Part shown: positions 1,754-21,157 of the stretch, piece by piece | Layout of the letters: each line of letters opens with the position of its first letter | Numbering within the stretch: the first letter of the stretch is position 1 | IMG/VR virus record: IMGVR_UViG_3300044535_000956 | Coordinates: 1-21,754 of that record | Length of the DNA: 21,754 nucleotides | Reading direction: 5' to 3' (one strand) | DNA from: a virus | Program-made: the position numbers and the translations under genes | The notes under the pieces: generated by a model | What the model was told of the DNA's origin: nothing | The model's database searches: none | The model's input: only the letters and a program-made list of their open reading frames with translations

Positions 1754-1762
1754 TGGTATACT
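1754..1762 (+). promoter_or_regulatory. Extended -10 promoter upstream of major tail protein gene
   Basis: TGG followed by TATACT (1757-1762) makes an extended -10 element (TGnTATAMT) in the 65-base gap between the terminator and tube genes. No good -35 is seen 17 bases upstream, which is typical for extended -10 promoters. Transcription would start near 1769, leaving a leader of about 44 bases that holds the strong ribosome site. The 11-mer GGTATACTTAG is shared with the promoter at 2561, and the 9-mer TGGTATACT with the one at 21650. Confidence 0.55.
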
Positions 1763-1800: not shown

Positions 1801-1806
1801 GAGGTG
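1801..1806 (+). promoter_or_regulatory. Strong ribosome binding site of major tail protein gene
   Basis: GAGGTG at 1801-1806 lies 6 bases before the ATG at 1813. It decides the start: the GTG at 1804 that would lengthen the frame by three codons is part of this ribosome site and so is not the start. Confidence 0.75.
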
Positions 1807-1812
1807 AAAAAT

Positions 1813-2493
1813 ATGGCATATAACAGAGGACAAAGTACTAACATTATCGTTGGTGCAGCCGCTTTATTTACATACGAGCCAGGTGTTCTAACTGAAGGTC
1901 TTCTTCCAGCTTACCAGCCAGAAGGAACTGTTAACAATACAACAGGAACCTACAAAGAGACACTTGCAAATGCAACTAGCGTAACTGCTGGTTTCCGTAA
2001 CGTAGGTTACACAATGAACGGTCTAGAGTTGCAATTCCAGCCTGACTTCGGTGAGGTACAGGTTGACCAGGTTCTTGACGTTGCAAAGCTATACAAGCAG
2101 GGTATGCAGGTTAACCTGAACACTGCTTTTGCTGAAGCAACACTAGAGAACTTGCTATTCTCTCTAGCTGGTAAAGATGATGACCTAACATCAAGCGCAG
2201 GTGCTACAGGTATTAAGGCTGGATCTCCATCCCTAAACCTATCAGCAGGTGACATTGGTGAGTGCCCAGTAGAGCGTGGTCTCGTAGCTGTTGGTCCAGG
2301 TACAGGTGACTGTAACCCGAACGAGCAGATTGAGCGCATCTATGTAGCATACCGTGCACTTTCTATTGAGAGTGTTACAGTATCTGCAAAGCGTGACGAG
2401 CCAACAATGTACGAGGTTTCGTTCCGTCTACTACCAAACGATAACGCATCCTACGGTAAGATCGTAGACCGCACTATCCCAGCAGTATCATAA
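1813..2493 (+). CDS. Major tail (tube) protein
   Basis: A 226-residue protein, probably the tube subunit that polymerises along the tape measure protein to make the tail shaft. It begins MAYNRGQSTNIIVGAAALFTY, has a strand-rich body (GYTMNGLELQFQPDFGEVQVDQ) and ends with a beta-rich part (SIESVTVSAKRDEPTMYEVSF), as tube proteins of long-tailed phages do. Position just before the chaperones and tape measure supports this. It stands alone between a promoter (1754) and a terminator (2518), which suits a protein needed in hundreds of copies. Its codon use differs from most neighbours: 7 of 8 arginine codons are CGT/CGC and lysine is mostly AAG, while nearby genes mostly use AGA/AGG and AAA. This looks like adaptation for high expression rather than transfer. 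I see no added Ig-like domain. Confidence 0.85.
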   Translation: MAYNRGQSTNIIVGAAALFTYEPGVLTEGLLPAYQPEGTVNNTTGTYKETLANATSVTAGFRNVGYTMNGLELQFQPDFGEVQVDQVLDVAKLYKQGMQVNLNTAFAEATLENLLFSLAGKDDDLTSSAGATGIKAGSPSLNLSAGDIGECPVERGLVAVGPGTGDCNPNEQIERIYVAYRALSIESVTVSAKRDEPTMYEVSFRLLPNDNASYGKIVDRTIPAVS

Positions 2494-2517
2494 TTTAATA
2501 TATAACTTAATAACACG

Positions 2518-2556
2518 AAGCTGTCCAGTCTTTTTAGGCTGGGCAGTTTTGTTTTT
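2518..2556 (+). terminator. Rho-independent terminator after major tail protein gene
   Basis: Inverted repeat AAGCTGTCCAG (2518-2528) against CTGGGCAGTTT (2539-2549), an 11-bp stem with two G-U pairs and a 10-base loop, runs directly into TTTTGTTTTT. It begins 24 bases after the tube stop codon, so it would end most tube transcripts and separate their level from the chaperone and tape measure genes. Confidence 0.85.
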
Positions 2557-2560
2557 GCGG

Positions 2561-2573
2561 TATACTTAGATAA
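2561..2573 (+). promoter_or_regulatory. Promoter for a leaderless transcript of the long chaperone gene
   Basis: TATACT at 2561-2566 is followed by 6 bases and then the ATG at 2573, so transcription is expected to start at or next to the A of the start codon. There is no Shine-Dalgarno sequence before that ATG. This spacing is the classic leaderless layout of Actinobacteria. No convincing -35 is visible; the box lies right after the terminator T-run. GGTATACTTAG repeats the sequence at the tube promoter. Confidence 0.55.
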
Positions 2574-3274
2574 TGGCAACTAATATATATAAAGTAAGTT
2601 ATTTTGATCTAATGGATGGCACCATTATAGAGGGGTCTCCTCTTAAAATTAAATATTTAAGAGAGTTCATGGATAGATTTGACATAGTAAAAAAAGCAAA
2701 AGACGATGAAGAAGCTATTAGAGATTTAGCCTTTTGTGCACTAGTAGCTATGAAGCAATACTACCCTCAAATAAAAACAATTGCTGAACTAGAAGATTCT
2801 GTAGATTTAAAAACAATATATCAGATTATTGATATAGCAGCAGATATTAAAATAAGGGACAACCCAGAAAAAGAAGTAAGTAGCCAGGCAAAAGAAGGTG
2901 GAGCTACTTGGGAAAACATGGATTTGGCTAAGCTTGAATCAGAGGTATTTTTGCTGGGAATTTGGAAAGACTATAATGAGCTAGAGCTTTCCCTTTCTAT
3001 GCCAGAGTTGATGGCAACCCTAGAGTCAAAAAGAGATCTAGATTATCAAGAAAAGAAATTTTTAGCCGCTATTCAGGGAGTTGACATAGACAAGAATAGT
3101 GGAAAGTCTTCTGAGAATAAATGGGAAGAGATGAAGGCTAGGGTATTTAGTGGTGGAAAAGCCAAGGATGGAAGTGACGTGTTGGCTCTTCAGGGGGTTA
3201 ATGCTCAAAAGGCTGGATTTGGAATTGGTATGGGGCTTGGCTATGAAGACCTCACAAAACCCCTTAAAAAATAG
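2573..3274 (+). CDS. Tail assembly chaperone, long form (G-like plus T-like parts)
   Basis: A 233-residue protein inferred to bind the tape measure and recruit tube subunits, in the role of lambda gpG-T. Residues 1 to about 95 (DLMDGTIIEGSPLKIKYLREFM..., AMKQYYPQI, DLKTIYQI) are paralogous to the next gene: about 36 identical positions over roughly 95 in my hand alignment. Residues 105-233 form an extra C-terminal part (SLSMPELMATLESKR, YQEKKFLAAIQGVDID, a WEEMKARVFSGG stretch and a Gly-rich end) that matches the T region in position. In most such phages the long form is made by frameshifting, but here it is one unbroken frame that comes before the short gene. Arginine codons are all AGA/AGG (6 of 6), suggesting modest expression. 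The start has no ribosome site and lies 6 bases after a -10 box. Confidence 0.7.
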   Translation: MATNIYKVSYFDLMDGTIIEGSPLKIKYLREFMDRFDIVKKAKDDEEAIRDLAFCALVAMKQYYPQIKTIAELEDSVDLKTIYQIIDIAADIKIRDNPEKEVSSQAKEGGATWENMDLAKLESEVFLLGIWKDYNELELSLSMPELMATLESKRDLDYQEKKFLAAIQGVDIDKNSGKSSENKWEEMKARVFSGGKAKDGSDVLALQGVNAQKAGFGIGMGLGYEDLTKPLKK

Positions 3275-3283
3275 AGGTTTTTA
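3257..3283 (+). terminator. Weak terminator-like hairpin across the stop codon
   Basis: AAAACCCCT against AGAGGTTTT (one mismatch, about 8 pairs) with an A-rich loop, followed by a short T-run, overlaps the TAG at 3272-3274 and lies just before the next promoter. The stem is AT-rich and weak, so partial termination or chance are both possible. Confidence 0.35.
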
Positions 3284-3292
3284 TGTTATAAT
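3284..3292 (+). promoter_or_regulatory. Extended -10 promoter for the short chaperone and tape measure genes
   Basis: TGT then TATAAT (3287-3292) is a full consensus extended -10. TTAAAA at 3264-3269, 17 bases upstream, matches 4 of 6 positions of a -35 box. The start would fall near 3299, giving a leader of about 28 bases with GGAAGGA (3310-3316) ahead of the ATG at 3327. It would also supply the tape measure gene 19 bases past the short gene. Confidence 0.6.
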
Positions 3293-3326
3293 AGGTGAAG
3301 CCTCATAGCGGAAGGACTAAAATAAT

Positions 3327-3650
3327 ATGAGTACAGAAGTATACGAAGAAAAGACAATTAAGCTAATTGACGGAACAGAAATTAAGGTTCGTCCCTTAAA
3401 GATTTCCTTGCTCCGTCCTTTTATGAAAAAGTTTGAGGGTATTGCAGAAGTTGCAGAGGATAACGACAAGTCAATGAGTATCTTGATGGACTGTGTTCAG
3501 ATCGCAATGAAGCAGTACAAGCCAGAGTTGGCTGAAGACTTAAAGGCTTTAGAGGAGATTCTAGATCTTCCTACAGTTTACAAGATTGTTGAGGAAGCAT
3601 CAGGCGTTAAGCTTGGAGAAGTTTCTCTTAACGGCCTTGTCACTAATTAA
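3327..3650 (+). CDS. Tail assembly chaperone, short form (G-like)
   Basis: A 107-residue protein paralogous to the N-terminal part of the long chaperone just upstream. Shared blocks include IDGT, RPLKI/SPLKI, LR-FM, AMKQY-P and DL-T-Y-I. It lacks any T-like extension. I infer the lambda gpG role: many copies coat the tape measure protein before tube assembly. The stop is 18 bases before the tape measure start, leaving no room for a frameshifted extension, so the long/short pair here does not need frameshifting in this gene. Both arginine codons are CGT and 11 of 12 lysine codons are AAG, like the highly expressed tube gene and unlike the long paralogue. It has its own consensus extended -10 promoter and a GGAAGGA ribosome site with somewhat long (10-base) spacing. 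Confidence 0.7.
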   Translation: MSTEVYEEKTIKLIDGTEIKVRPLKISLLRPFMKKFEGIAEVAEDNDKSMSILMDCVQIAMKQYKPELAEDLKALEEILDLPTVYKIVEEASGVKLGEVSLNGLVTN

Positions 3651-3668
3651 ATAAAGAGGTGCTAGTGG

Positions 3669-6600
3669 ATGGCTGAAGATGCCAATGCCAGAATAAGAGT
3701 TGATATTGATACGGCTGAAGCCTTAGCCAATATCAAAAATCTTCAACGCCAGATTTCAGCCTTTCACACTAGCATGGCTAAGGGTGGAGCAGCTGCTGCT
3801 GCATCATCAATAAACCTGCAACAGGGCCTACTTAATAGCATCAATAAAACTGGCCAGTTCTCTGCAACAATAAAAACTGTAAAAACTACAACAGATTCTT
3901 TTACAAATTCACTTGAAAAGAATAAGCTGTCAATGGGAGAATACTTTAGGTATTCTGGAGCAGCTACAAAAACATTTGGAAAACTTTTCCGTACAGAGTT
4001 TGACACGATAAACAAAGTTGCCAGAGAACGTGTTAAAGATCTTCAGACTCAGTACATTAAAATGGGTCGAGACGCCAATGGCGCAATGCAAGCTATTGCG
4101 GTCAGGCCCTTATCTTTAGACATGAAAAATTTGGGTACACAAACCCAAATTGCAGCGCAGCGTCAGGCACTATTAAACCAGATGCTAAAACAAGGTTCTA
4201 CCAACCTTCTAAATTTTGGTAAAAATACCCAGTGGGCTGGTCGCCAGCTTATGGTTGGTTTTACAATTCCATTAGTAATGTTTGGCTCTGTTGCATCAAA
4301 AACATTTATGGACATGGAAAAGCAGGCAATTCGCTTTAAACGTGTATACGGCGAAATGTTTACAACAACAGCAGAAACAACAAAAGCTTTAGAAGAAATC
4401 AAAGATCTAGCGAATGAGTTTACAAAATATGGTGTAGCGGTAGCAAAGACTATGGAGCTTGCTGCCGACATTGCTGCTACTGGTAAGATGGGCGCAGACC
4501 TAACCGCACAGGTTGCACAAGCAACACGCCTAGCCGTACTTGGTGGGGTAGAGCAAGCAGAAGCCTTAAAAGCTACAATATCACTAACAGATGCATTCGG
4601 AGTTGCAGCAGAGCAACTTGCTGGAAAAATAGACTTCTTAAACGCTGTTGAAAACCAAACTGTAACTTCTATTGAAGATTTGACAATAGCAATTCCAAAA
4701 GCTGGACCAGTAGTTCAGCAACTAGGTGGAGATGTTCAAGATTTAACCTTCTTCCTAACTGCCATGCGTGAAGGTGGTATTAATGCTTCAGAAGGTGCCA
4801 ACGCCCTAAAGTCTGGTTTGGCATCTATGATTAACCCAACTGGTAAAGCAGCAGAAATGCTTCAGGGTTTTGGAATTAATCTTAAAGGCATTGTTGATGC
4901 AAATAAGGGCGATGTTAAAGGCATCGTAATAGACTTTGCTAAAGCCTTAGACACTCTAGACCCACTAAATCGTGCACAAGCAATTGAGCAGCTATTTGGA
5001 AAATTCCAGTTTGCACGTCTATCAACTTTATTCCAAAACGTAATTAAAGAAGGAAATCAGGCTAGCCGTGTTTTAAAGTTAGCTAATGCAACCACTGAAG
5101 AGTTAGCAATCCTTTCTGAGCGAGAGTTGAAAAAAGTTGAAGACTCTCCAATGTTTAAGTTTCAAAAAGCTGTTGAAGATATCAAGGTCACCCTTGTTCC
5201 TCTTGGAGAGGCATTCCTAAAAGCTGTAACTCCAGTTCTAGAATTTGGAACAAAGATTCTTGAAAAGTTTAACGAGCTTGATGCTGGCGCTAAACAATTT
5301 GTTGTAGGGCTAACAGCAATTGCTGGAGTAATTGGTCCAGTATTCCTAATGGGCTTTGGTCTTATTGCCAACGGTGTTGCAAACGTAATAAAAGGATTTG
5401 TATTCTTTAAAACTGCAATGAACAAGGCTGGCTCAGCTAGCTCTCAGCTAGGTATGCAAACAGAATACATGACTCAGCAACAGCTAGAGGCTTCTGCAGT
5501 TGCCGCTTCTTTGGATCAGATTCACACAAAGCTAACTCAAACCTTTACATCTGAAGCTTCAGCTATTAATAATTTAACCGCTTCATATAATAGATCTATA
5601 GCAGCTCAGGCACTAATGACTGGCGGAGCAATTAAAAGAACAAGGCCACCTAAGAAGTATGCGTCTGGAGTTCTATCAGTTCCAGGACCCAAGGGAGCAG
5701 GAGACGTTGTTCCAGCCATGCTTTCTCCAGGGGAAGCAATTATCCCAGCTAAACAAGCAAGCAAGTACAGTGGCTTTATTTCATCTATGATTTCTGATAA
5801 CATTCCTGGCTTTAGGTTTGGAATGAATCCTTTTGCGTCAATTCTTGGAAGGTCAAACGTTGGCGTTAGAATGCAGAGTCAGGCCTTTTCTCAGGCACTA
5901 GCTTCTGGAAATAAAAAGTATCAAAGCGGTTTTGCTACAGGAACTGGAGACGACTTCCTAAGTAAGTACGGACTAAAAAAGCCTAAGCAGAAGAAGTTAA
6001 GGACTAACTTAGAACAAAATATTTTTGGTTTGCCAGGGGACACATCAGGCAGTAAACGCCCAACATATGGCTTTGCTTCATCATCACCCCTTCAGGCAAT
6101 TTTAAACACACTTCTATTTGGAAAAACTGGGGCAAGAGCTTCAGGAGCAATGAACCCAAGATCATCTAAGCTAGATAGATACGGAGACATTTCTCTAATA
6201 ACAAAGGGATCTGTAGCTAAAAGATCATCTGCTTATGCTGGAGACATTCTTTTAGATTATTCTAGAAATAAAAACTTGTCAGGTTCTCCAGCACCAATGC
6301 GTGGGGCAACAACAGGTCAGTCACAAGCAGCTCAATTTGGAAGATTTGAACAACCATTTGGAAATATCCCAACTGGTGGAAACAGTTTTACAACTAATCC
6401 AAAACCACCATACATAGAGACCTATACTCCTGGCGGATTTGCATTTAAAGAAATTGACAAAATTATTGCTAAAAATCCAACAATCGCCAAACAGTTAAGA
6501 GCTGAGCTAAAAGAGGCAGGGCTTGCCTCCGTACGTGTTACTGGATCTAACTTTGCTGCAAGGCTGTTTAAAAAGATTGGTGTCCCTGGATATAAGGATG

Positions 6601-9600
6601 GAGTATTCTCTGTTCCTGGGCCTAAGGGTGCAGGGGACGTGGTACCGTCAATGCTTTCTCCTGGAGAAGCTGTAATCCCAGCTAAGCCAGCTGAGAAATA
6701 TGCCTCTCTTATTCAATCAATGATTGCCGATAACATTCCTGGATTTGAAAACTCAAATGTAAAGAAAAAATCTGGAATGGTTGTAAAGGATGTTAAGTTA
6801 AAGTCATCTGCTGGCACTTCCGCTGCAACCCCTAAGGCTCGCCCCGCAGCCCCCAGAATAGCACCACCAGACACAGTAACTGGATATACAGATTTTGTTA
6901 CTCTTTTGGGCAAGGATGACAATTCTAACCTTAATAATAGAAAAGCAAACCCTAAGGATCTTGCAGCTAAATTTAGATCTGCTGGAAGCATGGGAATGTC
7001 TCCAGTAGTAGATGCAATGCTTGGAGCTATGGGCTTTACAGACCAGAGACAAATTAAGAAAGCTGTTGAGGGTAACCCAGAGTTGGCAAAAAATCTTAAA
7101 GGATTTGCAACCAATCTTAGTTCTGGCATTGCTAATGAATTAGATAAAGTTCCAGATGCTTTAATGGGAGATCCAAAACTTTCAAGCATAGCAAAAAAAG
7201 TTGGAACGGCAACTGCCAAAAAATTTGGTCCAGACATTGAAAAAGCTTTTAAAACAGTACAGCAAACTCCGACAGTAGGACTCGACGATACAAGAGAAAG
7301 AATTAATTCACAAAATAAAGCAAGGGCTTCAGAAAGAATTAATTTAATTTCTGGAAACTCAGGCTATATTGCTAAGGGGGTAGACAGGTTTACTAAAACT
7401 GGAAATCTTCTTGGCTTGACAGGAAATATTCCCTCAGATGCAGTTAAGGCTCACCTATCAAAATCTGAACCAGTTAGCTTGTCTGAATTAGAAAAAAACT
7501 ATAAGCTATCTGATTCAGCACAAGAAGCAAAAGCAAAAAAGCTCAGTGGTATAAAGCAGGTCCATAGAGAAGGTCAAGCTCAAAACAAGGTTATAGTCCC
7601 AGCAGGATACACTGCAAAACAGTCTATTGCAGAGCTAGAAAAAGTTCAGGGTGTTCAAAAAGAAAATGTAAAAGCTGAAGAAAAAGTAGTTAAGCAAAAA
7701 GCAAAGGTTGTTAAAGAAGATTCAAAAACAACAAAGGTTAAAGCAGCTACCGCAAAAGTTGAAAAAGAAAACCAGGTAAAAGCTAAAAAAGCAGACGCTG
7801 CTAGAAAAGGCTGGGAAACCAGAAGGGCTAAAGCTACTGCTGCCAATCAGCCAACCGCTACTGCTCCAAAATCACGCAGAGCTCCTATGGGTCTTGGAAC
7901 TGTTGGAATGGTCGCCTCTGGAGCTGTTGTGGCTGGTTCGATGATGCCAGGAGTTGTTGGTGAAATTTCTCAACAGCTAATGATGCCAGTTATGGCACTA
8001 TCCATGATCCTTCCAATGCTAACAAGTAAATTTGCTCTTGTGACTGCAGGAATTGCTGGCCTTGTTGCAGCCTTTGTTTTTGTTCAAATGGCTATAGCAG
8101 GAATTAGAAAAGAAAGTGCTGAAGCTGTCAGATCATTAAGTTCTGGAAAAGAAGCAATGTCTAAATTTGCTGAAGCTGCTGGTACAGTAACTGGATCTGA
8201 ATACATGCAAAAGCGTAGGCAGCAAGAAGTATCGCCTTTTGTAGTTGAAACAGGAAAAACAACTTTTGGTCAATCTTTTATTGATTCAGAAGCTGGAACA
8301 GCAATGCTTTCAGATTTTGAAAAACAGGTTGAAAGATTTGGACAATCTAGAGCTATAGAATCATTACAGAAGCAATTAACAACAGCAGTTGCTACTGGAG
8401 TTTTAAGTGCAGAACAGGCTCAAAGCATAGCTCAGTCTCTTGGACAAAAATTAAATGATTATGGAATAACTGCAAACATTAATGCATCTATTCAGTCAAT
8501 AGTCGGTCCAGACGGAAAAGTTTTAGATGGAAACACTATCAAGATATACACAGAGTTTATTCAGAGCTCAACATCTGGAATTACTGGAACAGGCGGAATT
8601 CTTCAATCTGAAGATCTAACTGGAGGAGCTCCATTATGGTGGTGGGACACTGAAAGGGTTGCTAAGAGAGAAGGCGAGGCATCTGGAATTATTGCTAATT
8701 TCTATGATGAAAACCAACAAATAATTGATGCCTTTGATGCAGAAAACTTAAAAAACATTGACGCCCTATTCGAGCAAGGTAAATATGATGAAGCCCTTGC
8801 TGCAGAAGAAACTTATCAGATTGATAGAAAAAACCTTATATCATCATATAACACTAAGATTGTAGAATTACAAAAAGACTTTGCTGGAGTAGACTTTACA
8901 AAACAGCAAGGAATTTTGTCTCAGCTAGCAGGCTTGGCAAAAAAGACTGACGCTAAGTTTGGAACTGCAGCAGATAAGTTACAAGGATCTTCTGCTATAT
9001 TGACAAAAAATGCATTTGGACAAGAAGTTGCTGCAAGTACTGTTAGGGCTACTAGCGGAGGTAGACTAACAGGGGCAGAAAACATTGCTAAAGAGCAAGC
9101 TTTTCAGCAAGTTAAGGTTCAGTTCTTAGGAGAAATTGCAGCAGGAAATATAGACCCTGAAACATTTAATGGGTTGCTAAAAATGTTTGACCCTACAACA
9201 GGTGCTGGACAAACAACACTATCTATTTTAGCTAAGATAACCACAGAGATTGGTCCTCAAGCACTAGCACAGCTAGAAAATATTTTTGCAAAATTAGAAA
9301 ACCCAGAGCAAGCTGCCGAAATAGCTGTAAAAATTAAAGACATTAAGAATCCAGAGCAACTTCAAAACACAATTACTACATTAGAAAAGTTATCTACTTT
9401 TGATGGTAGGGGTATTGAGGCAAAAGTTGTCTTAGGATTTTTTGGAGAAAACCCAGAAAAGCTAGCCGAATTACAAGCAAAATTTACACAGCTTAGCGAT
9501 ATGGCAGAAGCAGGAAAGCTTAACATTCAGACACTTGTTGATCAAAGAATTATAACTACTGGAGACATGGAAGCTTTTAAAGCAGACCAGGCATACTTTA

Positions 9601-11822
9601 ATAGTCTAGCTCCAGAGCAACAGGTAAGATATGTTCAGGTTTATTTAAGTAAGATTGAAACTATAGCAGAAAATGAAATTGACGCATGGTTTGCCACAAA
9701 CAAAGATTCTAAGAGAACTAGGGAACAAGTTGCTTCACTTCTTGCAGGTCAGGCAGCAACTCAGTATACTATTTCTAACCCAATCAAGGATCCGACTGCT
9801 GAGAGCAAGACTGTAAACAACAATGGCGGAGGAAGAAAATCCGACCCTCTAGATGGTATCCTAAAATCACTTCAAAATGTAAGAAAAGCCTCCATTAATG
9901 CTCTGGGCGGAACCAAAGAATTATTTAAGCTTTTTGAAAAAGGCAAAAATATTTCAGTATTTAAGGGAATTGAAAATCAGCTATTAACCTTAACATCTAA
10001 TACTGATTTTGCTAGTTTTATATCGGGCCTAGACAAGCAAGAGCAAAAGCTATTTATTACTATTAAAAAGGGTAATGTTGAATTAACTAACCGTGGTCGC
10101 TTACTAGAAAAGGCATATCGAGCAAAAAGTGTTGGAGACTTTGTTTTGTCTCAGCAAAAATTGGCTATATCATCTAAGAATGAACTTACTGCTAGAAATC
10201 TTTTAATTAAAGCTGGATACAGTTATGTAGAAGCTGTAGAGCTTTCAAGGGATGCAGATATAGCAGCAGCCTATGCCTCAGCCGCAGCAACTAAGGGTGC
10301 TAAAGCTAGGAAAAAAGCTATTGAAGATGTAGACAAGGCATTAAGAAAAGGTTTAGCTGCACAAAAAGCAACACTTACTGCAGAAGAAAAGTTTGATGAA
10401 CTTTATGATAAAATTCAAGGAAAGTTAGATGCAGACAAAACTGCTATTGAACTTAAGTTTAAACTTGACTCTGCTGCAGATGACAAAATAATTCGGGATG
10501 CAGAAAACAAAATTGCTGGAATTCAATATAAGCTAGATGATCAAGAAGCTGGACTTACATTAATATCTGACAAAGAAGAAGTCATTAATGAAAAGTATGA
10601 CAAGAGACTTGAAGCTTTAGACAAGATTAAATCAGTTAATGACAGAATTTCACAACAGCAAAAGAACCAGCTTTCTTTGGCTGACGCACTTTCTTCTGGA
10701 GACATTGGAGCAGCTGCAGCTGCAATGCAGCAGATTCAGCAACAGTTTGTTTCTGACTCATCTGCTCAACAAGAAGACCTTATTGAAAAAGCAAGACAGC
10801 AAGAGCTTTTAAAAGTATCTGTATTAGTTAATGGTGAACTAAAAACAAGAGAGCAAATTGAAAAAACAATTAAAGATCTTCAAAAAGAAATTTTTGAAAT
10901 AGAGGAAGGTAGGCTAGAGCCTGCATTAGAAAGAAACAGACTTCTCGTTGTTGCTAGAGATGAAGCCCTGCTAAAACTTGACCAAGAATCTGATAAGTGG
11001 CTAGCAGTTAAAAATAGCATTGAGATAGCTAAGTACGCAGCCTTGGACTATGCTCAGGCTTTAAGAGACGCAAACGCTTTAGCACTGCAAGCAGTTGCTC
11101 AAATAAATAATCCATTAGCGGCTACTGGACAAGAACCAGTAGTACCTCAAGATGTTGCACCAAAAAATGATGTCAAGGCCAAGCTTGGTGGAACACCAGC
11201 TCCGACGGTTACACCAGACCCACTAACTCAACAACAAATAATTGCAAGAGACCAAGCCGCCAGCCAAGCAGCGTTCAAAGCATCTGGGCTTTCTGCTTCT
11301 GGATACATTAAACAGGTAGAAGCAAAAGAAGCAACCAAAGCCGCAGCTGACAAAAAAGCTAAAATCGCTGCAGATCAAAAGTCTAGCAAGGCCGCTCAAG
11401 TAAAGTCTGGACTTTCTACTGCTGCCTATATAAAACAAGTAGATGCAAAAGCAGCTGCAAAGCCTACTGGCCCAGCTCTTAGAGCATTACTGAGGGCCAA
11501 TGGCGGACTTGTTAGCTATATGTCAAATGGGGGCACTCCAAAGGTTGCCAAGCCATCTTGGGCAAAAACTGTGGGTACTGACAGAATTCCAGCTATGCTA
11601 ACCCCTGGAGAATTTGTAATAAACAGACCTGCAGTCTCAAAGATTGGTGTTGATTCATTAAAGAAAATAAATAATGGAGAATACTCTGGCGGTTCAGTGT
11701 ATAATTATAGCGTTAGCGTAAATGTAAAAACAGATGCAAATGCAGATCAGATTGCAAAGACTGTAATGACACAAATTAAACAAATTGATTCTCAAAGAAT
11801 CAGGGGAGTTGGTCTAAAGTGA
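3669..11822 (+). CDS. Tail tape measure protein
   Basis: A 2717-residue protein that sets tail length and is expected to be delivered with the DNA. The N-terminal 500 residues carry the classical phage tail tape measure core (VASKTFMDMEKQAIRFKRV, AAEQLAGKIDFL, TAMREGGINASEGANALKSG, QLFGKFQFARL). Hydrophobic segments lie near 193-212, 545-572, 1407-1430 and 1438-1480. Two 52-residue repeats start at residues 664 and 975 and bracket a possible inserted globular domain (about 825-965). Residues 1325-1405 are Lys/Ala-rich, and 2190-2500 are coiled-coil-like. A 31-residue duplication (2528 and 2569) is followed by a third, diverged copy of the VPAMLxPGE motif (2634) and a beta-rich end. GAGGTG at 3656-3661 gives a good ribosome site. 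I see no M23 peptidase or transglycosylase motif. At the usual ratio of 0.15 nm per residue the tail would be near 400 nm, probably an overestimate because of the inserted domains. Confidence 0.9.
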   Translation: MAEDANARIRVDIDTAEALANIKNLQRQISAFHTSMAKGGAAAAASSINLQQGLLNSINKTGQFSATIKTVKTTTDSFTNSLEKNKLSMGEYFRYSGAATKTFGKLFRTEFDTINKVARERVKDLQTQYIKMGRDANGAMQAIAVRPLSLDMKNLGTQTQIAAQRQALLNQMLKQGSTNLLNFGKNTQWAGRQLMVGFTIPLVMFGSVASKTFMDMEKQAIRFKRVYGEMFTTTAETTKALEEIKDLANEFTKYGVAVAKTMELAADIAATGKMGADLTAQVAQATRLAVLGGVEQAEALKATISLTDAFGVAAEQLAGKIDFLNAVENQTVTSIEDLTIAIPKAGPVVQQLGGDVQDLTFFLTAMREGGINASEGANALKSGLASMINPTGKAAEMLQGFGINLKGIVDANKGDVKGIVIDFAKALDTLDPLNRAQAIEQLFGKFQFARLSTLFQNVIKEGNQASRVLKLANATTEELAILSERELKKVEDSPMFKFQKAVEDIKVTLVPLGEAFLKAVTPVLEFGTKILEKFNELDAGAKQFVVGLTAIAGVIGPVFLMGFGLIANGVANVIKGFVFFKTAMNKAGSASSQLGMQTEYMTQQQLEASAVAASLDQIHTKLTQTFTSEASAINNLTASYNRSIAAQALMTGGAIKRTRPPKKYASGVLSVPGPKGAGDVVPAMLSPGEAIIPAKQASKYSGFISSMISDNIPGFRFGMNPFASILGRSNVGVRMQSQAFSQALASGNKKYQSGFATGTGDDFLSKYGLKKPKQKKLRTNLEQNIFGLPGDTSGSKRPTYGFASSSPLQAILNTLLFGKTGARASGAMNPRSSKLDRYGDISLITKGSVAKRSSAYAGDILLDYSRNKNLSGSPAPMRGATTGQSQAAQFGRFEQPFGNIPTGGNSFTTNPKPPYIETYTPGGFAFKEIDKIIAKNPTIAKQLRAELKEAGLASVRVTGSNFAARLFKKIGVPGYKDGVFSVPGPKGAGDVVPSMLSPGEAVIPAKPAEKYASLIQSMIADNIPGFENSNVKKKSGMVVKDVKLKSSAGTSAATPKARPAAPRIAPPDTVTGYTDFVTLLGKDDNSNLNNRKANPKDLAAKFRSAGSMGMSPVVDAMLGAMGFTDQRQIKKAVEGNPELAKNLKGFATNLSSGIANELDKVPDALMGDPKLSSIAKKVGTATAKKFGPDIEKAFKTVQQTPTVGLDDTRERINSQNKARASERINLISGNSGYIAKGVDRFTKTGNLLGLTGNIPSDAVKAHLSKSEPVSLSELEKNYKLSDSAQEAKAKKLSGIKQVHREGQAQNKVIVPAGYTAKQSIAELEKVQGVQKENVKAEEKVVKQKAKVVKEDSKTTKVKAATAKVEKENQVKAKKADAARKGWETRRAKATAANQPTATAPKSRRAPMGLGTVGMVASGAVVAGSMMPGVVGEISQQLMMPVMALSMILPMLTSKFALVTAGIAGLVAAFVFVQMAIAGIRKESAEAVRSLSSGKEAMSKFAEAAGTVTGSEYMQKRRQQEVSPFVVETGKTTFGQSFIDSEAGTAMLSDFEKQVERFGQSRAIESLQKQLTTAVATGVLSAEQAQSIAQSLGQKLNDYGITANINASIQSIVGPDGKVLDGNTIKIYTEFIQSSTSGITGTGGILQSEDLTGGAPLWWWDTERVAKREGEASGIIANFYDENQQIIDAFDAENLKNIDALFEQGKYDEALAAEETYQIDRKNLISSYNTKIVELQKDFAGVDFTKQQGILSQLAGLAKKTDAKFGTAADKLQGSSAILTKNAFGQEVAASTVRATSGGRLTGAENIAKEQAFQQVKVQFLGEIAAGNIDPETFNGLLKMFDPTTGAGQTTLSILAKITTEIGPQALAQLENIFAKLENPEQAAEIAVKIKDIKNPEQLQNTITTLEKLSTFDGRGIEAKVVLGFFGENPEKLAELQAKFTQLSDMAEAGKLNIQTLVDQRIITTGDMEAFKADQAYFNSLAPEQQVRYVQVYLSKIETIAENEIDAWFATNKDSKRTREQVASLLAGQAATQYTISNPIKDPTAESKTVNNNGGGRKSDPLDGILKSLQNVRKASINALGGTKELFKLFEKGKNISVFKGIENQLLTLTSNTDFASFISGLDKQEQKLFITIKKGNVELTNRGRLLEKAYRAKSVGDFVLSQQKLAISSKNELTARNLLIKAGYSYVEAVELSRDADIAAAYASAAATKGAKARKKAIEDVDKALRKGLAAQKATLTAEEKFDELYDKIQGKLDADKTAIELKFKLDSAADDKIIRDAENKIAGIQYKLDDQEAGLTLISDKEEVINEKYDKRLEALDKIKSVNDRISQQQKNQLSLADALSSGDIGAAAAAMQQIQQQFVSDSSAQQEDLIEKARQQELLKVSVLVNGELKTREQIEKTIKDLQKEIFEIEEGRLEPALERNRLLVVARDEALLKLDQESDKWLAVKNSIEIAKYAALDYAQALRDANALALQAVAQINNPLAATGQEPVVPQDVAPKNDVKAKLGGTPAPTVTPDPLTQQQIIARDQAASQAAFKASGLSASGYIKQVEAKEATKAAADKKAKIAADQKSSKAAQVKSGLSTAAYIKQVDAKAAAKPTGPALRALLRANGGLVSYMSNGGTPKVAKPSWAKTVGTDRIPAMLTPGEFVINRPAVSKIGVDSLKKINNGEYSGGSVYNYSVSVNVKTDANADQIAKTVMTQIKQIDSQRIRGVGLK
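5658..5813 (+). repeat. Tape measure 52-residue repeat, copy 1
   Basis: Residues 664-715 of the tape measure protein, with the core SVPGPKGAGDVVPAMLSPGE and the ending SDNIPGF. It has the same length as copy 2, with 40 of 52 residues identical by hand count. The DNA copies differ at many third positions, so the duplication is not recent. Confidence 0.85.
6141..6545 (+). other. Possible inserted globular domain inside the tape measure protein
   Basis: Residues about 825-959, between the two 52-residue repeats. The segment is Gly/Pro/Ser-rich with RYGDISLITKGSVAKRSS, then AGDILLDY, then YIETYTPGGFAFKEIDKII and LRAELKEAGLASVRV. The YGD... / GD... / YIE... layout recalls DUF3626-type, ADP-ribosyltransferase-like domains as I remember them. 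This is a memory-based resemblance with no search behind it. It is clearly unlike the helical tape measure core. Confidence 0.35.
6591..6746 (+). repeat. Tape measure 52-residue repeat, copy 2
   Basis: Residues 975-1026, with core SVPGPKGAGDVVPSMLSPGE and ending ADNIPGF, aligned without gaps to copy 1. What follows (about 1027-1320) is a second segment of unknown fold, then a Lys-rich helical linker. Confidence 0.85.
11250..11465 (+). repeat. Tandem 31-residue duplication near the tape measure C-terminus
   Basis: Two units, 11250-11342 and 11373-11465 (period 123 bases, 41 residues). Each has the pattern DQ-xxS-x-AA-xxx-SGLS-xxx-YIKQV-x-AK-xA-x-K. Both are Ala/Lys-rich and helix-forming, separated by a short Lys/Ala linker. 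They sit right before the C-terminal GTDRIPAMLTPGEFVI motif. Confidence 0.7.
11568..11640 (+). repeat. Third, diverged copy of the VPAMLxPGE motif
   Basis: Residues 2634 to about 2657 read TVGTDRIPAMLTPGEFVINRPAV, which matches the GAGDVVPAMLSPGEAIIPAK core of the two internal repeats. In actinophage tape measure proteins this GTD-PAMLTPGE-V motif is common near the C-terminus; the two internal copies are the unusual ones. Confidence 0.6.
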
Positions 11823-18959: not shown

Positions 18960-19428
18960 AAAAGCTAAAATTTTATTATCTGACATTCCTATAGTAGATG
19001 CTGAAAATCAATACATTGTAAGGTATCGAGTAATATCTGAAGATAAAAACAGAGTCTCGCACTGGTCTCAGTTTTTAAAAGTTCCAGGCCCAGCTATATC
19101 CTCATCTGTAGATAAGGGAGCAATTAGCGTTACCATTAAAGACATTACGGTAAGCTGGCTTGATTCTCCAAAAAGGGGGTCTTACGATGTATTTGTCAGA
19201 TACGGAAACAAGGCAACACCAACATCTCCGATTGTGTGGGGAAGCTATGCATACTCTGGAAGCTCATCATCTCAATCTTTTGTTATTCTTAATAATGTAA
19301 CTGCTGGATTTATTGGAGTAATAGTTCAGGTTTCTGGGAATAAAACTATAAACTCTTTGCTTGAGATATATGAAGATTTTTCTACTTTAAAAGCAGAAAT
19401 TGATGGAGGAAACGCAAATGGCATTTAG
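18946..19428 (+). CDS. Small fibronectin-III-like tail protein, putative
   Basis: A 160-residue protein. After a short polar start come YIVRYRVISEDKNRVSHWSQFLKVP and then VTIKDITVSWLDSPKRGSYDVFVRYGN, an alternation of strands ending in Y-V-RY and W-S-x that resembles fibronectin type III-like folds seen on phage tails and typically used for weak surface contacts. The last part (TAGFIGVIVQVSGNK) is another strand pair. The GTG at 18946 overlaps the upstream gene by 14 bases, with GGGGG at 18935-18939 and 6 bases of spacing. The 3' end overlaps the collar-fibre start by 11 bases. The fold is a guess from the pattern; the function is unknown apart from the tail context. Confidence 0.5.
   Translation: MDNLKKAKILLSDIPIVDAENQYIVRYRVISEDKNRVSHWSQFLKVPGPAISSSVDKGAISVTIKDITVSWLDSPKRGSYDVFVRYGNKATPTSPIVWGSYAYSGSSSSQSFVILNNVTAGFIGVIVQVSGNKTINSLLEIYEDFSTLKAEIDGGNANGI
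19405..19410 (+). promoter_or_regulatory. Ribosome binding site that decides the collar-fibre start
   Basis: GGAGGA at 19405-19410 lies 7 bases before the ATG at 19418. The frame could be lengthened upstream to an ATG at 19400, but that lies before this site and would give a start (MMEETQ) that does not look like the family N-terminus, whereas MAFSIQLRRDT does. Confidence 0.8.
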
Positions 19429-20362
19429 CATTCAACTAAGGAGAGACACTTCTGCAAATTGGGGAACAGCAAATCCAGTATTGCTAAAGGGAGAGCCTGG
19501 TTTTGAAACAGACACTGGTAGGCTAAAAGTAGGAGACGGAGCTACTGCCTGGAATGTCTTAGCATACTTTGTTCCAGATTCTGGTCTAACTCCATCAGCT
19601 CCTCCGACTGGGAGCATTACAATGTTTGCTGGATCTAGCGCACCAAGCGGCTGGCTTATTTGTGATGGAACAGCGTTGTCGAGAGAAACCTATTCTTCTT
19701 TGTTTAGTATTGTTGGAACTATCTATGGTTCTGGGAATAATACAACTACCTTTAATATTCCAAATCTTAAGGGCAAGGTTCCAGCTGGATTTGATGTTTC
19801 TCAAGCAGAGTTTAACACTCTTGGGCAAAATGGTGGATCAAAAACCCACACATTAACTGTAGATCAAATGCCAAGCCACACTCATACTCAAAATGCTCAT
19901 AACCATACTGGATCTGCAGATTTTGGAGGTTCCCACGCTCACACGGCAAGTTCGGAATCTGCAGGTAGTCACGGCCATACGGCGTCAACAGCTTCTGCAG
20001 GAGCACACGACCACAATAACATTGCTTCTTCTGGTAGCCACGATCACAGCTACAATGTTGGAAACACTGTCACTAGAGTATCTGGAACGATTAATACTGC
20101 GTCTATTGTTCTTGGTACGTCCCAAACAACTGGAACTAGATCACATACACACAACATTGCTTCTGATGGATCCCACAGTCACACAGTGACAGTTAATGAT
20201 GGCGGGTCTCATTCACACACCATAACCGTAAATGATGGGGGTTCCCACTCACACACATTGAGTGTAAATAACACAACTGCAACTAATCAAAATACTGGTG
20301 GTGGAGCTGCACACAATATTCTTCAGCCATATTTAGCACTAAACTATATAATCAAAGTATAA
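19418..20362 (+). CDS. Tail fibre with tail-collar domain and HxH repeats
   Basis: A 314-residue fibre, likely a receptor-binding or short tail fibre. Residues 1-50 (IQLRRDTSANWGTANPVLLKGEPGFETDTGRLKVGDGATAWNVL) are the trimer-forming N-terminal fibre module seen in many phages. Residues about 64-150 (GSITMFAGSSAPSGWLICDGTALSRETYSSLFSIVGTIYG, then TTFNIPNLKGKVPAGFD) are a standard phage tail collar domain. After NGGSKTHTLTVDQMPSHTH the protein is a run of at least eight His-x-His repeats, ending in TGGGAAHNILQPYLALNYIIKV, the usual collar terminus. In T4 gp37 and gp12 similar HxH sites bind metal along the trimer axis, so metal-stabilised needle structure is expected. The nearby chaperone at 20371 probably assists folding. 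Only the repeat part is hypervariable-looking. Confidence 0.85.
   Translation: MAFSIQLRRDTSANWGTANPVLLKGEPGFETDTGRLKVGDGATAWNVLAYFVPDSGLTPSAPPTGSITMFAGSSAPSGWLICDGTALSRETYSSLFSIVGTIYGSGNNTTTFNIPNLKGKVPAGFDVSQAEFNTLGQNGGSKTHTLTVDQMPSHTHTQNAHNHTGSADFGGSHAHTASSESAGSHGHTASTASAGAHDHNNIASSGSHDHSYNVGNTVTRVSGTINTASIVLGTSQTTGTRSHTHNIASDGSHSHTVTVNDGGSHSHTITVNDGGSHSHTLSVNNTTATNQNTGGGAAHNILQPYLALNYIIKV
19874..20267 (+). repeat. His-x-His repeat array in the collar fibre
   Basis: Repeats of the form G-S-H-x-H-T follow each other: SHTHTQNAHNHT, GSHAHT, GSHGHT, GAHDHN, GSHDHS, RSHTHN, GSHSHT (three times), with typical spacing of 11-13 residues. The last three are the most regular, a 12-residue unit DGGSHSHTITVN, located at about 20164-20275. 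They use different codons for the same residues, so they are not a recent slippage product. Confidence 0.85.
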
Positions 20363-20695: not shown

Positions 20696-20704
20696 TGATA
20701 TAAT
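20696..20704 (+). promoter_or_regulatory. Extended -10 promoter for a nearly leaderless transcript
   Basis: TGA followed by TATAAT (20699-20704) is a perfect extended -10 box in the 28-base gap before the ATG at 20714. Transcription should start near 20711, leaving at most about three bases of leader, and no Shine-Dalgarno site is present. No good -35 is seen. Confidence 0.6.
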
Positions 20705-20713
20705 ATAAACACT

Positions 20714-21157
20714 ATGGCTAAAATTCCTTTACCAGAACGTGGTCAACCACTTGATCTTTCTTATGTGTATCAGCTAGCGACAGCAATTAATGATATTTCA
20801 TCTGAGATATCTCCATCAATTTACAAGTATGTTTCTATAGATACTCCAACTGCAGGCCCTCAAAACATCCGTGCTTCAGAGTCTAGAATTATTGCTGGGT
20901 ATTTAGATATTGCAACTAACAGTAATGTTAACAGTGGAAATGAAAAACCTTTTATTTATAACTTTAAGACTGATTTTAAATATCCGCCTATTGTCACAGC
21001 TACCCTTATTAACGTGGGCAACACACCAGCTGGACAAAATGTTTCTGTAATTTTAACTAATGTTTCTACTTCTGCTGCAGAAGGTATTGTCAAGTTTGGC
21101 TCTAGCGGAGACCTCTCTGTTGGAGTTAATCTTATCGCAATTGGCGTTCCAAACTAA
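20714..21157 (+). CDS. Small beta-rich virion protein, possibly H-type-lectin-like
   Basis: A 147-residue protein with N-terminus IPLPERGQPLDLSYVYQLATAIND, an amphipathic helix that could anchor it to the virion, and a C-terminal half with FIYNFKTDFKYPPIVTATLINVGNTPAGQ followed by SVILTNVSTSAAEGIVKF. The F-xx-xFxxPP-V-x-x-L... pattern followed by an even strand pair resembles H-type lectin-like beta-sandwich domains, which some phages use for sugar contact. This resemblance is weak and from memory. The gene has no ribosome site and starts about 9 bases after a TATAAT box, so it probably comes from its own, nearly leaderless, transcript. It might decorate the tail fibre or capsid. Confidence 0.5.
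   Translation: MAKIPLPERGQPLDLSYVYQLATAINDISSEISPSIYKYVSIDTPTAGPQNIRASESRIIAGYLDIATNSNVNSGNEKPFIYNFKTDFKYPPIVTATLINVGNTPAGQNVSVILTNVSTSAAEGIVKFGSSGDLSVGVNLIAIGVPN

What the first reader, a model, noticed from the sequence alone, without database searches (positions are those of the whole stretch)
2573..3650. Two paralogous tail assembly chaperone genes in place of a frameshifted G/G-T pair
The 233-residue protein and the 107-residue protein share their G-like part (about 36 identical residues over 95 in a hand alignment), but only the first carries a T-like extension, within one unbroken frame. Both sit between the tube and tape measure genes. In the well-studied lambda-type arrangement one gene makes both forms by programmed frameshift. 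Here a duplication seems to have replaced recoding, so the ratio of the two forms could be set by transcription and translation. The order is also reversed, with the long form first.
Basis: partly seen in the sequence, partly recalled or inferred. Interest (0 to 1): 0.72.

Follow-up and report, generated by a model that had tools for sequence, protein, structure and literature searches.

The report
Duplicated tail chaperone replaces ribosomal frameshift
Long-tailed viruses usually make the short and long forms of a tail-building helper protein from one gene by a ribosome slip; this uncultured virus lineage instead carries two gene copies, each behind its own predicted promoter, while its close relatives still use the slip.

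Summary
ORF 2573-3274 (233 aa) is a tail assembly chaperone of G-T type in one frame, and ORF 3327-3650 (107 aa) is a paralogous G (39% identity over 96 residues, E 2e-20). They lie between the tube and tape-measure genes. Among 203 distinct related loci, 113 have fused GT plus a downstream G, 90 have a single G with T in the -1 frame, and none mixes the two. Frameshift-type G genes end with a slippery heptamer (mostly CCCAAAC) in 83 of 90; duplicated-type G genes in 8 of 113 (background), with no T in the -1 frame. Trees favour one duplication of a frameshifting ancestor: G kept the ancestral promoter, leader and Shine-Dalgarno site, while GT's G-part diverged fast. GT is preceded in all 113 by a terminator hairpin, then a -10 element that typically ends exactly 6 nt before the ATG, with no Shine-Dalgarno site (predicted leaderless). 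G has a stronger extended -10, a 26-nt leader and a Shine-Dalgarno site. The G:GT ratio is therefore most likely set by promoters and initiation, not recoding. Expression itself is untested. T4-like phages are a precedent for chaperones made without frameshifting, so this is a new variant of a known kind.

The parts
1754..1762 (+). extended -10 (TGGTATACT) upstream of the tube gene
   Evidence: pattern scan; sequence-based only
1804..2493 (+). tail tube / major tail protein (start more likely ATG 1813)
   Evidence: phrog_2175 E 3e-30 and weak phrog_885 major tail protein; homologue annotated 'major tail protein' in EGole
2515..2557 (+). intrinsic terminator hairpin (CTGTCCAG...CTGGGCAG) plus T-run that isolates GT from upstream transcription
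   Evidence: folds at -26.1 kcal/mol; a comparable hairpin upstream of GT in 113/113 loci (mean z -5.3)
2561..2566 (+). -10 element TATACT, ending 6 nt before the GT ATG: predicted leaderless start
   Evidence: sequence; 113 loci: median distance 6, IQR 6-6, no Shine-Dalgarno match in 113/113. In this window the TG of the extended -10 is displaced
2573..3274 (+). long tail assembly chaperone (fused GT, 233 aa): G-like part about residues 1-95, linker, T-like part about residues 106-233
   Evidence: AlphaFold2
3284..3292 (+). extended -10 (TGTTATAAT) of the G gene, in the GT-G intergenic region
   Evidence: TATAAT in 111/113 and extended in 113/113 loci
3310..3316 (+). Shine-Dalgarno GGAAGGA of the G gene
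   Evidence: Shine-Dalgarno match in 112/113 loci
3327..3650 (+). short tail assembly chaperone (G, 107 aa), paralogue that keeps the ancestral control region
3653..3661 (+). Shine-Dalgarno AAAGAGGTG of the tape-measure gene
3669..11822 (+). tape measure protein, 2717 aa
   Evidence: PF10145 PhageMin_Tail E 1e-24

Best explanation
This is a tail assembly chaperone module in which a single frameshifting G/G-T gene was duplicated once. The upstream copy became an in-frame GT fusion; the downstream copy lost its slippery site and T part and became the dedicated short form G. Shown by sequence: paralogy, synteny, loss of the slippery heptamer and of the -1 frame T, the derived state, and two different predicted control regions. 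Inferred: G coats the tape measure protein in excess, and the few GT molecules recruit tube subunits through T, as in phage lambda. Also inferred is how the excess of G arises. GT is transcribed from its own weaker, isolated promoter as a leaderless mRNA. That transcript runs on into G, because no terminator separates the two genes in most loci, and a second, stronger promoter with a Shine-Dalgarno leader adds G-only transcripts. Long-first order then means that every GT transcript also carries G, so G is always in excess.
For: Paralogy E 2e-20. Exclusive dichotomy: 177 fused plus G against 134 split in -1 frame without a second G, no mixed cases, 12 cut by contig ends. Slippery heptamer in 83/90 frameshift-type G against 8/113 duplicated-type G; background is about 0.05-0.07 per 22-codon window. 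The -1 frame past the G stop runs a median of 332 nt against 17 nt. The relative frame of GT and G is unconstrained (29/39/45, p 0.18). GT-N and G form separate clades (supports 100 and 89), and a single clade of duplicated loci is preferred or not rejected for T, G and tape measure. GT: -10 ends 6 nt before ATG (median), no Shine-Dalgarno in 113/113. G: TATAAT in 111/113, Shine-Dalgarno in 112/113, 26-nt leader, like the frameshift-type G (27 nt, Shine-Dalgarno in 90/90). Terminator-like hairpin upstream of GT in all, between GT and G in about 10%. Both genes under purifying selection (dN/dS about 0.1). WhiB in 14/18 large relatives indicates actinobacterial hosts, and leaderless ATG/GTG starts are translated well in mycobacteria (PMC4633059).
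Against: No transcription-start, ribosome-profiling or proteomic data exist for these uncultured phages; promoters, leaderless start and ratio are read from sequence. The fold match to a solved chaperone (HK97 gp13, 2OB9) is weak (Z 3.9 and 4.3). In this window a weak hairpin at the end of GT could partly terminate GT transcripts, and the GT -10 lacks the exact TGn extension seen in 105/113. One lineage (L185, L189, L207) has a frameshift-type chaperone next to a tape measure related to that of the duplicated type, so the correlation is not perfect across modules.
Confidence: 0.8

Rival explanations
1. Same duplication, but the ratio of short to long form is set mainly by translation, mRNA processing or protein stability rather than by the two promoters; leaderless GT and Shine-Dalgarno-led G are both read from one long transcript cut near the GT start.
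For: The Shine-Dalgarno contrast is as clean as the promoter contrast. No transcript ends are known.
Against: The -10 sits exactly 6 nt before the GT start codon in most of the divergent loci and follows a terminator-like hairpin in 113/113, the layout expected of a primary transcript rather than of processing.
Confidence: 0.2
2. Recoding persists in hidden form: the short form is also made from GT by a frameshift at the G/T junction, or a long form from the short gene.
For: About a fifth of GT junctions hold an XXXYYYZ heptamer, mostly A-rich.
Against: The heptamer rate in the junction (about 0.20) is close to the rate in the rest of GT (0.15 per window); G ends are at background; this window has none at either place; the -1 frame after G closes within a median 17 nt.
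Confidence: 0.04
3. The GT-type protein has left the chaperone role: its fast-evolving G-part now does something else, for example a dedicated tail-tip or tube-recruitment factor that no longer co-assembles with G.
For: GT-N is less conserved (mean identity 0.557) than G (0.670) or T (0.710) over the same loci, and sits on a branch of about 1.06 changes per site.
Against: T and the overall fold are kept, dN/dS is 0.13, and synteny between tube and tape measure is invariant.
Confidence: 0.12

Closest known systems
Lambda-type G/G-T tail assembly chaperones (programmed -1 frameshift)
   Same: Short G and long GT forms, GT = G part plus C-terminal T part, between tube and tape-measure genes; excess of short over long form required in lambda (30:1, PMC5009743)
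   Different: Two genes instead of one; no slippery site, no -1 frame T, long form first; the two G parts are only 39% identical rather than the same sequence
Chaperones of Stanwilliamsviridae Streptomyces phages (EGole, TunaTartare)
   Same: Homologous G (phrog_10504) and T (phrog_10474), same gene order, same terminator-promoter-leader layout before G
   Different: One gene; T in the -1 frame; TunaTartare annotated with a joined frameshift product; no second G
T4-like phage tail assembly chaperones (gp26 and gp51)
   Same: Two separate paralogous genes (20% identity, both PF12322); a 2022 paper title (Vladimirov, Gautam, Davidson, Virology 566:9-15; not held, cited in PMC12859696) states a mechanism other than frameshifting. 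That gp26/gp51 are the chaperones meant is from memory
   Different: Myoviruses; genes 26 and 51 are divergent in T4; no close frameshifting relatives in the same position were examined, no leaderless/Shine-Dalgarno pair known; only weak sequence similarity (one frameshift-type relative hits PF12322 at E 0.0012)

Membership tests
Lambda-type G/G-T tail assembly chaperone | short and long proteins that share an N-terminal part | tested here: met
   39% identity over 96 aa, E 2e-20; same PHROG
Lambda-type G/G-T tail assembly chaperone | position between major tail protein and tape measure | tested here: met
Lambda-type G/G-T tail assembly chaperone | slippery heptamer and T in the -1 frame of G | tested here: not met
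   window none; 8/113 at background in the duplicated type against 83/90 in frameshift relatives
Lambda-type G/G-T tail assembly chaperone | chaperone fold of G (HK97 gp13, 2OB9) | tested here: inconclusive
   Z 4.3, 88 residues, rmsd 5.0 for G; Z 3.9, 87 residues for GT, level with unrelated helical bundles. Viral library hits include named tail assembly chaperones, e.g. A0A6J5QVP5 E 5e-3
Lambda-type G/G-T tail assembly chaperone | short form in large excess; binding to tape measure and tube | not testable with these tools
   needs proteomics and binding assays
Stanwilliamsviridae chaperone family (phrog_10504 / phrog_10474) | sequence homology of G and T parts | tested here: met
   E 4.6e-17 and 5.5e-21 for the G parts and 8.6e-14 for T; tblastn to 127 Streptomyces phage records
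T4-like two-gene chaperones (PF12322) | Pfam T4_baseplate match | tested here: not met
   window proteins have no hit; one distant frameshift-type relative has E 0.0012, below the curated cut-off

The most novel reading that the evidence does not exclude
A widely conserved recoding event in tailed phages was lost once in a widespread actinophage lineage and replaced by duplication with a two-promoter, leaderless/Shine-Dalgarno ratio control. Freed from sharing one sequence, the G-part of the long form has become a specialised partner rather than a copy of the short form.
Probability: 0.55. Interest if true: 0.78.

Novelty: new variant of a known kind. Interest (0 to 1): 0.66.

Why it matters
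Why phages conserve the G/G-T frameshift, rather than simply having two genes, is an open question. This lineage is a natural experiment. Close relatives with and without recoding sit in the same gene context with homologous partners, so what the frameshift provides (fixed ratio, identical G parts, co-translation) can be compared with what replaced it. It also warns annotators who assume that two adjacent chaperone genes must be a missed frameshift (PRFect, PMC10885494, makes that presumption). It offers a predicted case of ratio control by leaderless against Shine-Dalgarno-led translation.

Tried and rejected
Frameshift from the short gene or within GT: slippery heptamers at background. Translational coupling or recoding between GT and G: relative frame unconstrained. 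Gene conversion between the copies: paralogue identity within a locus (0.402) equals that between loci (0.414). Independent duplications: a single clade of duplicated loci is preferred for T and G and compatible for the tape measure once L185 and L103 are left out; the first quick T tree nested a frameshift clade inside the duplicated one, but the constrained tree was better by 23.9 log units. Host or prophage context: no match in genome contigs. Direct DNA match to phage records: none. PDB by sequence: nothing relevant. The Pfam hits of GT (BppU-like_C, E 0.007) are below cut-off and were ignored. Planktophila phages E7 and F5 (PMC10202952) have about 39-kb genomes, and only Streptomyces phages appear among the 127 phage records matched (near records may be left out there). 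The Vladimirov 2022 paper and Xu 2013 were not held.

Full report
What is there. The window is a 21.8-kb virus record carrying a late tail module: tube protein, a 233-aa ORF (2573-3274), a 107-aa ORF (3327-3650), a 2717-aa tape measure protein and downstream tail genes. The two small ORFs share their first 95 residues (37/96 identities, E 2e-20). Only the first has a C-terminal extension, which matches phrog_10474, while both N-parts match phrog_10504.

Relatives. In cultured phages the only relatives found are 127 Streptomyces phage records; the four whose gene tables were read include members of Stanwilliamsviridae. There the two PHROG families are one G gene and a T ORF in the -1 frame, between the major tail protein and the tape measure, and TunaTartare is annotated with a joined product. 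Scans of viral contigs with the whole protein and with T-domain alignments gave 325 sequences in hand, counting the window and the fetched phage loci. Profile searches on stop-to-stop translations classed 177 as fused GT plus downstream G and 134 as G plus -1 frame T without a second G; 12 were cut by contig ends and none was mixed. After removing identical proteins, 113 and 90 remained. The scans return the best 80 of more than 500 matches each, so these counts are not a census.

Recoding signal. In the frameshift type, 83 of 90 G genes carry an in-frame XXXYYYZ heptamer in the last 22 codons (mainly CCCAAAC, with CCCAAAT and GGGAAAC), always inside the open T frame. The 7 without it are the close EGole/Samistivirus group. 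In the duplicated type 8 of 113 have one, against 0.05-0.07 expected per window from the gene bodies. The -1 frame past the G stop stays open for a median of 332 nt in the first type and 17 nt in the second. The offset of G relative to GT is spread over all three frames. These sequences are related, so the Fisher p value (1.6e-38) describes association, not independent events: the loss is probably one event.

History. In a tree of all G parts, GT-N forms one clade (support 100) on a long branch of 1.06 changes per site, and the separate G forms another (89) on a short branch of 0.14, next to frameshift-type G. Holding all duplicated loci together improves the likelihood in the T and G trees. 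In the tape-measure tree they form one side of a branch when L185 and L103 are left out, with weak support. A single duplication of a frameshifting ancestor is the simplest reading. Copies within a locus are no more alike than copies between loci, so there is no sign of gene conversion. GT-N evolves faster (mean identity 0.557) than G (0.670) and T (0.710), yet all have dN/dS near 0.1.

Control regions. Upstream of GT, all 113 loci have a terminator-like hairpin (mean z -5.3) and then a -10 element ending a median of 6 nt before the ATG (interquartile range 6-6), with no Shine-Dalgarno match in any; starts are ATG 111 and GTG 2. This is the layout of a leaderless gene: in mycobacteria a -10 or a Shine-Dalgarno site upstream of the start codon distinguishes leaderless from leadered genes, only ATG or GTG at +1 works, and leaderless translation is about as strong as leadered (PMC4633059). 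Upstream of G, TATAAT is found in 111/113, an extended -10 in 113/113, a 26-nt leader and a Shine-Dalgarno site in 112/113; the G of frameshift-type phages has the same layout (27 nt, 90/90). So G kept the ancestral control region and GT acquired the leaderless one, with less perfect -10 hexamers (TATACT in 52). A hairpin between GT and G is seen in only about 10% of loci, so GT transcripts should continue into G. In this window there is a weak hairpin at the end of GT (-10.7 kcal/mol) and the extended TG of the GT -10 is displaced.

Host. 14 of 18 large relatives (contigs of 61-125 kb) encode WhiB, a family restricted to Actinobacteriota and their phages (PMC10202952). Actinobacterial hosts are therefore likely, which makes leaderless translation plausible.

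Structure. AlphaFold2 gives both N-parts the same order of elements: two strands at 9-12 and 18-21, then helices at about 26-40, 45-63, 70-76 and 79-90 (pLDDT about 90 for the N-part of GT, 71 mean for G). HK97 gp13 (2OB9) is among the best solved matches over the whole domain (Z 3.9 and 4.3), but at a level shared by unrelated helical bundles, and Foldseek on the PDB is not significant. Among predicted viral structures, hits to GT include named tail assembly chaperones.

Mechanism. In lambda the short form is in 30:1 excess, G parts bind the tape measure and T binds the tube subunit (PMC5009743). A dedicated short gene and a fused long gene can supply the same two proteins. Upstream GT with a weaker promoter, read-through into G and a second stronger promoter before G would give G in excess automatically, and would explain why the long form comes first. 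This ratio mechanism is inference from sequence.

Novelty. In T4, genes 26 and 51 are paralogues of one Pfam family, and a 2022 paper title reports a non-frameshift mechanism for T4-like chaperones (cited in PMC12859696). Chaperones made without frameshifting are therefore not new. New here, as far as the searchable literature shows, are a resolved transition from frameshift to duplication within one lineage, the paired control regions, and the asymmetric divergence of the two G parts.

Noticed in passing
window 20696-20714: ORF 20714-21157 is preceded by TGATATAAT ending 9 nt before its ATG and has no evident Shine-Dalgarno site: a second leaderless-looking late gene.
   Followed up: partly
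window 1754-1762: The tube gene also has its own extended -10 (TGGTATACT) with a leader of about 50 nt, so tube, GT and G each seem to have a promoter.
   Followed up: partly
L185 (3995-4336 and tape measure downstream), L207, L189: A frameshift-type chaperone next to a tape measure whose nearest duplicated-type relative is L080 (53-54% identity in the N-part): suggests exchange between chaperone and tape-measure modules, or reversal.
   Followed up: partly
L050 and L076, end of GT: GT ends early and a short LTKP-like stretch follows in frame after the stop, as if the intergenic promoter region had been inserted into an older GT C-terminus.
   Followed up: no
L083 4001-4345 and relatives (EGole group): These frameshift-type phages lack a perfect XXXYYYZ heptamer (CCCGGAA in the corresponding place) although T is in the -1 frame; they may use a different slip motif.
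   Followed up: no
window 19400-20362: Predicted protein with repeated His/Gly-rich segments (SHTHT, GGSHAHTASS), tail-collar-like by eye.
   Followed up: no
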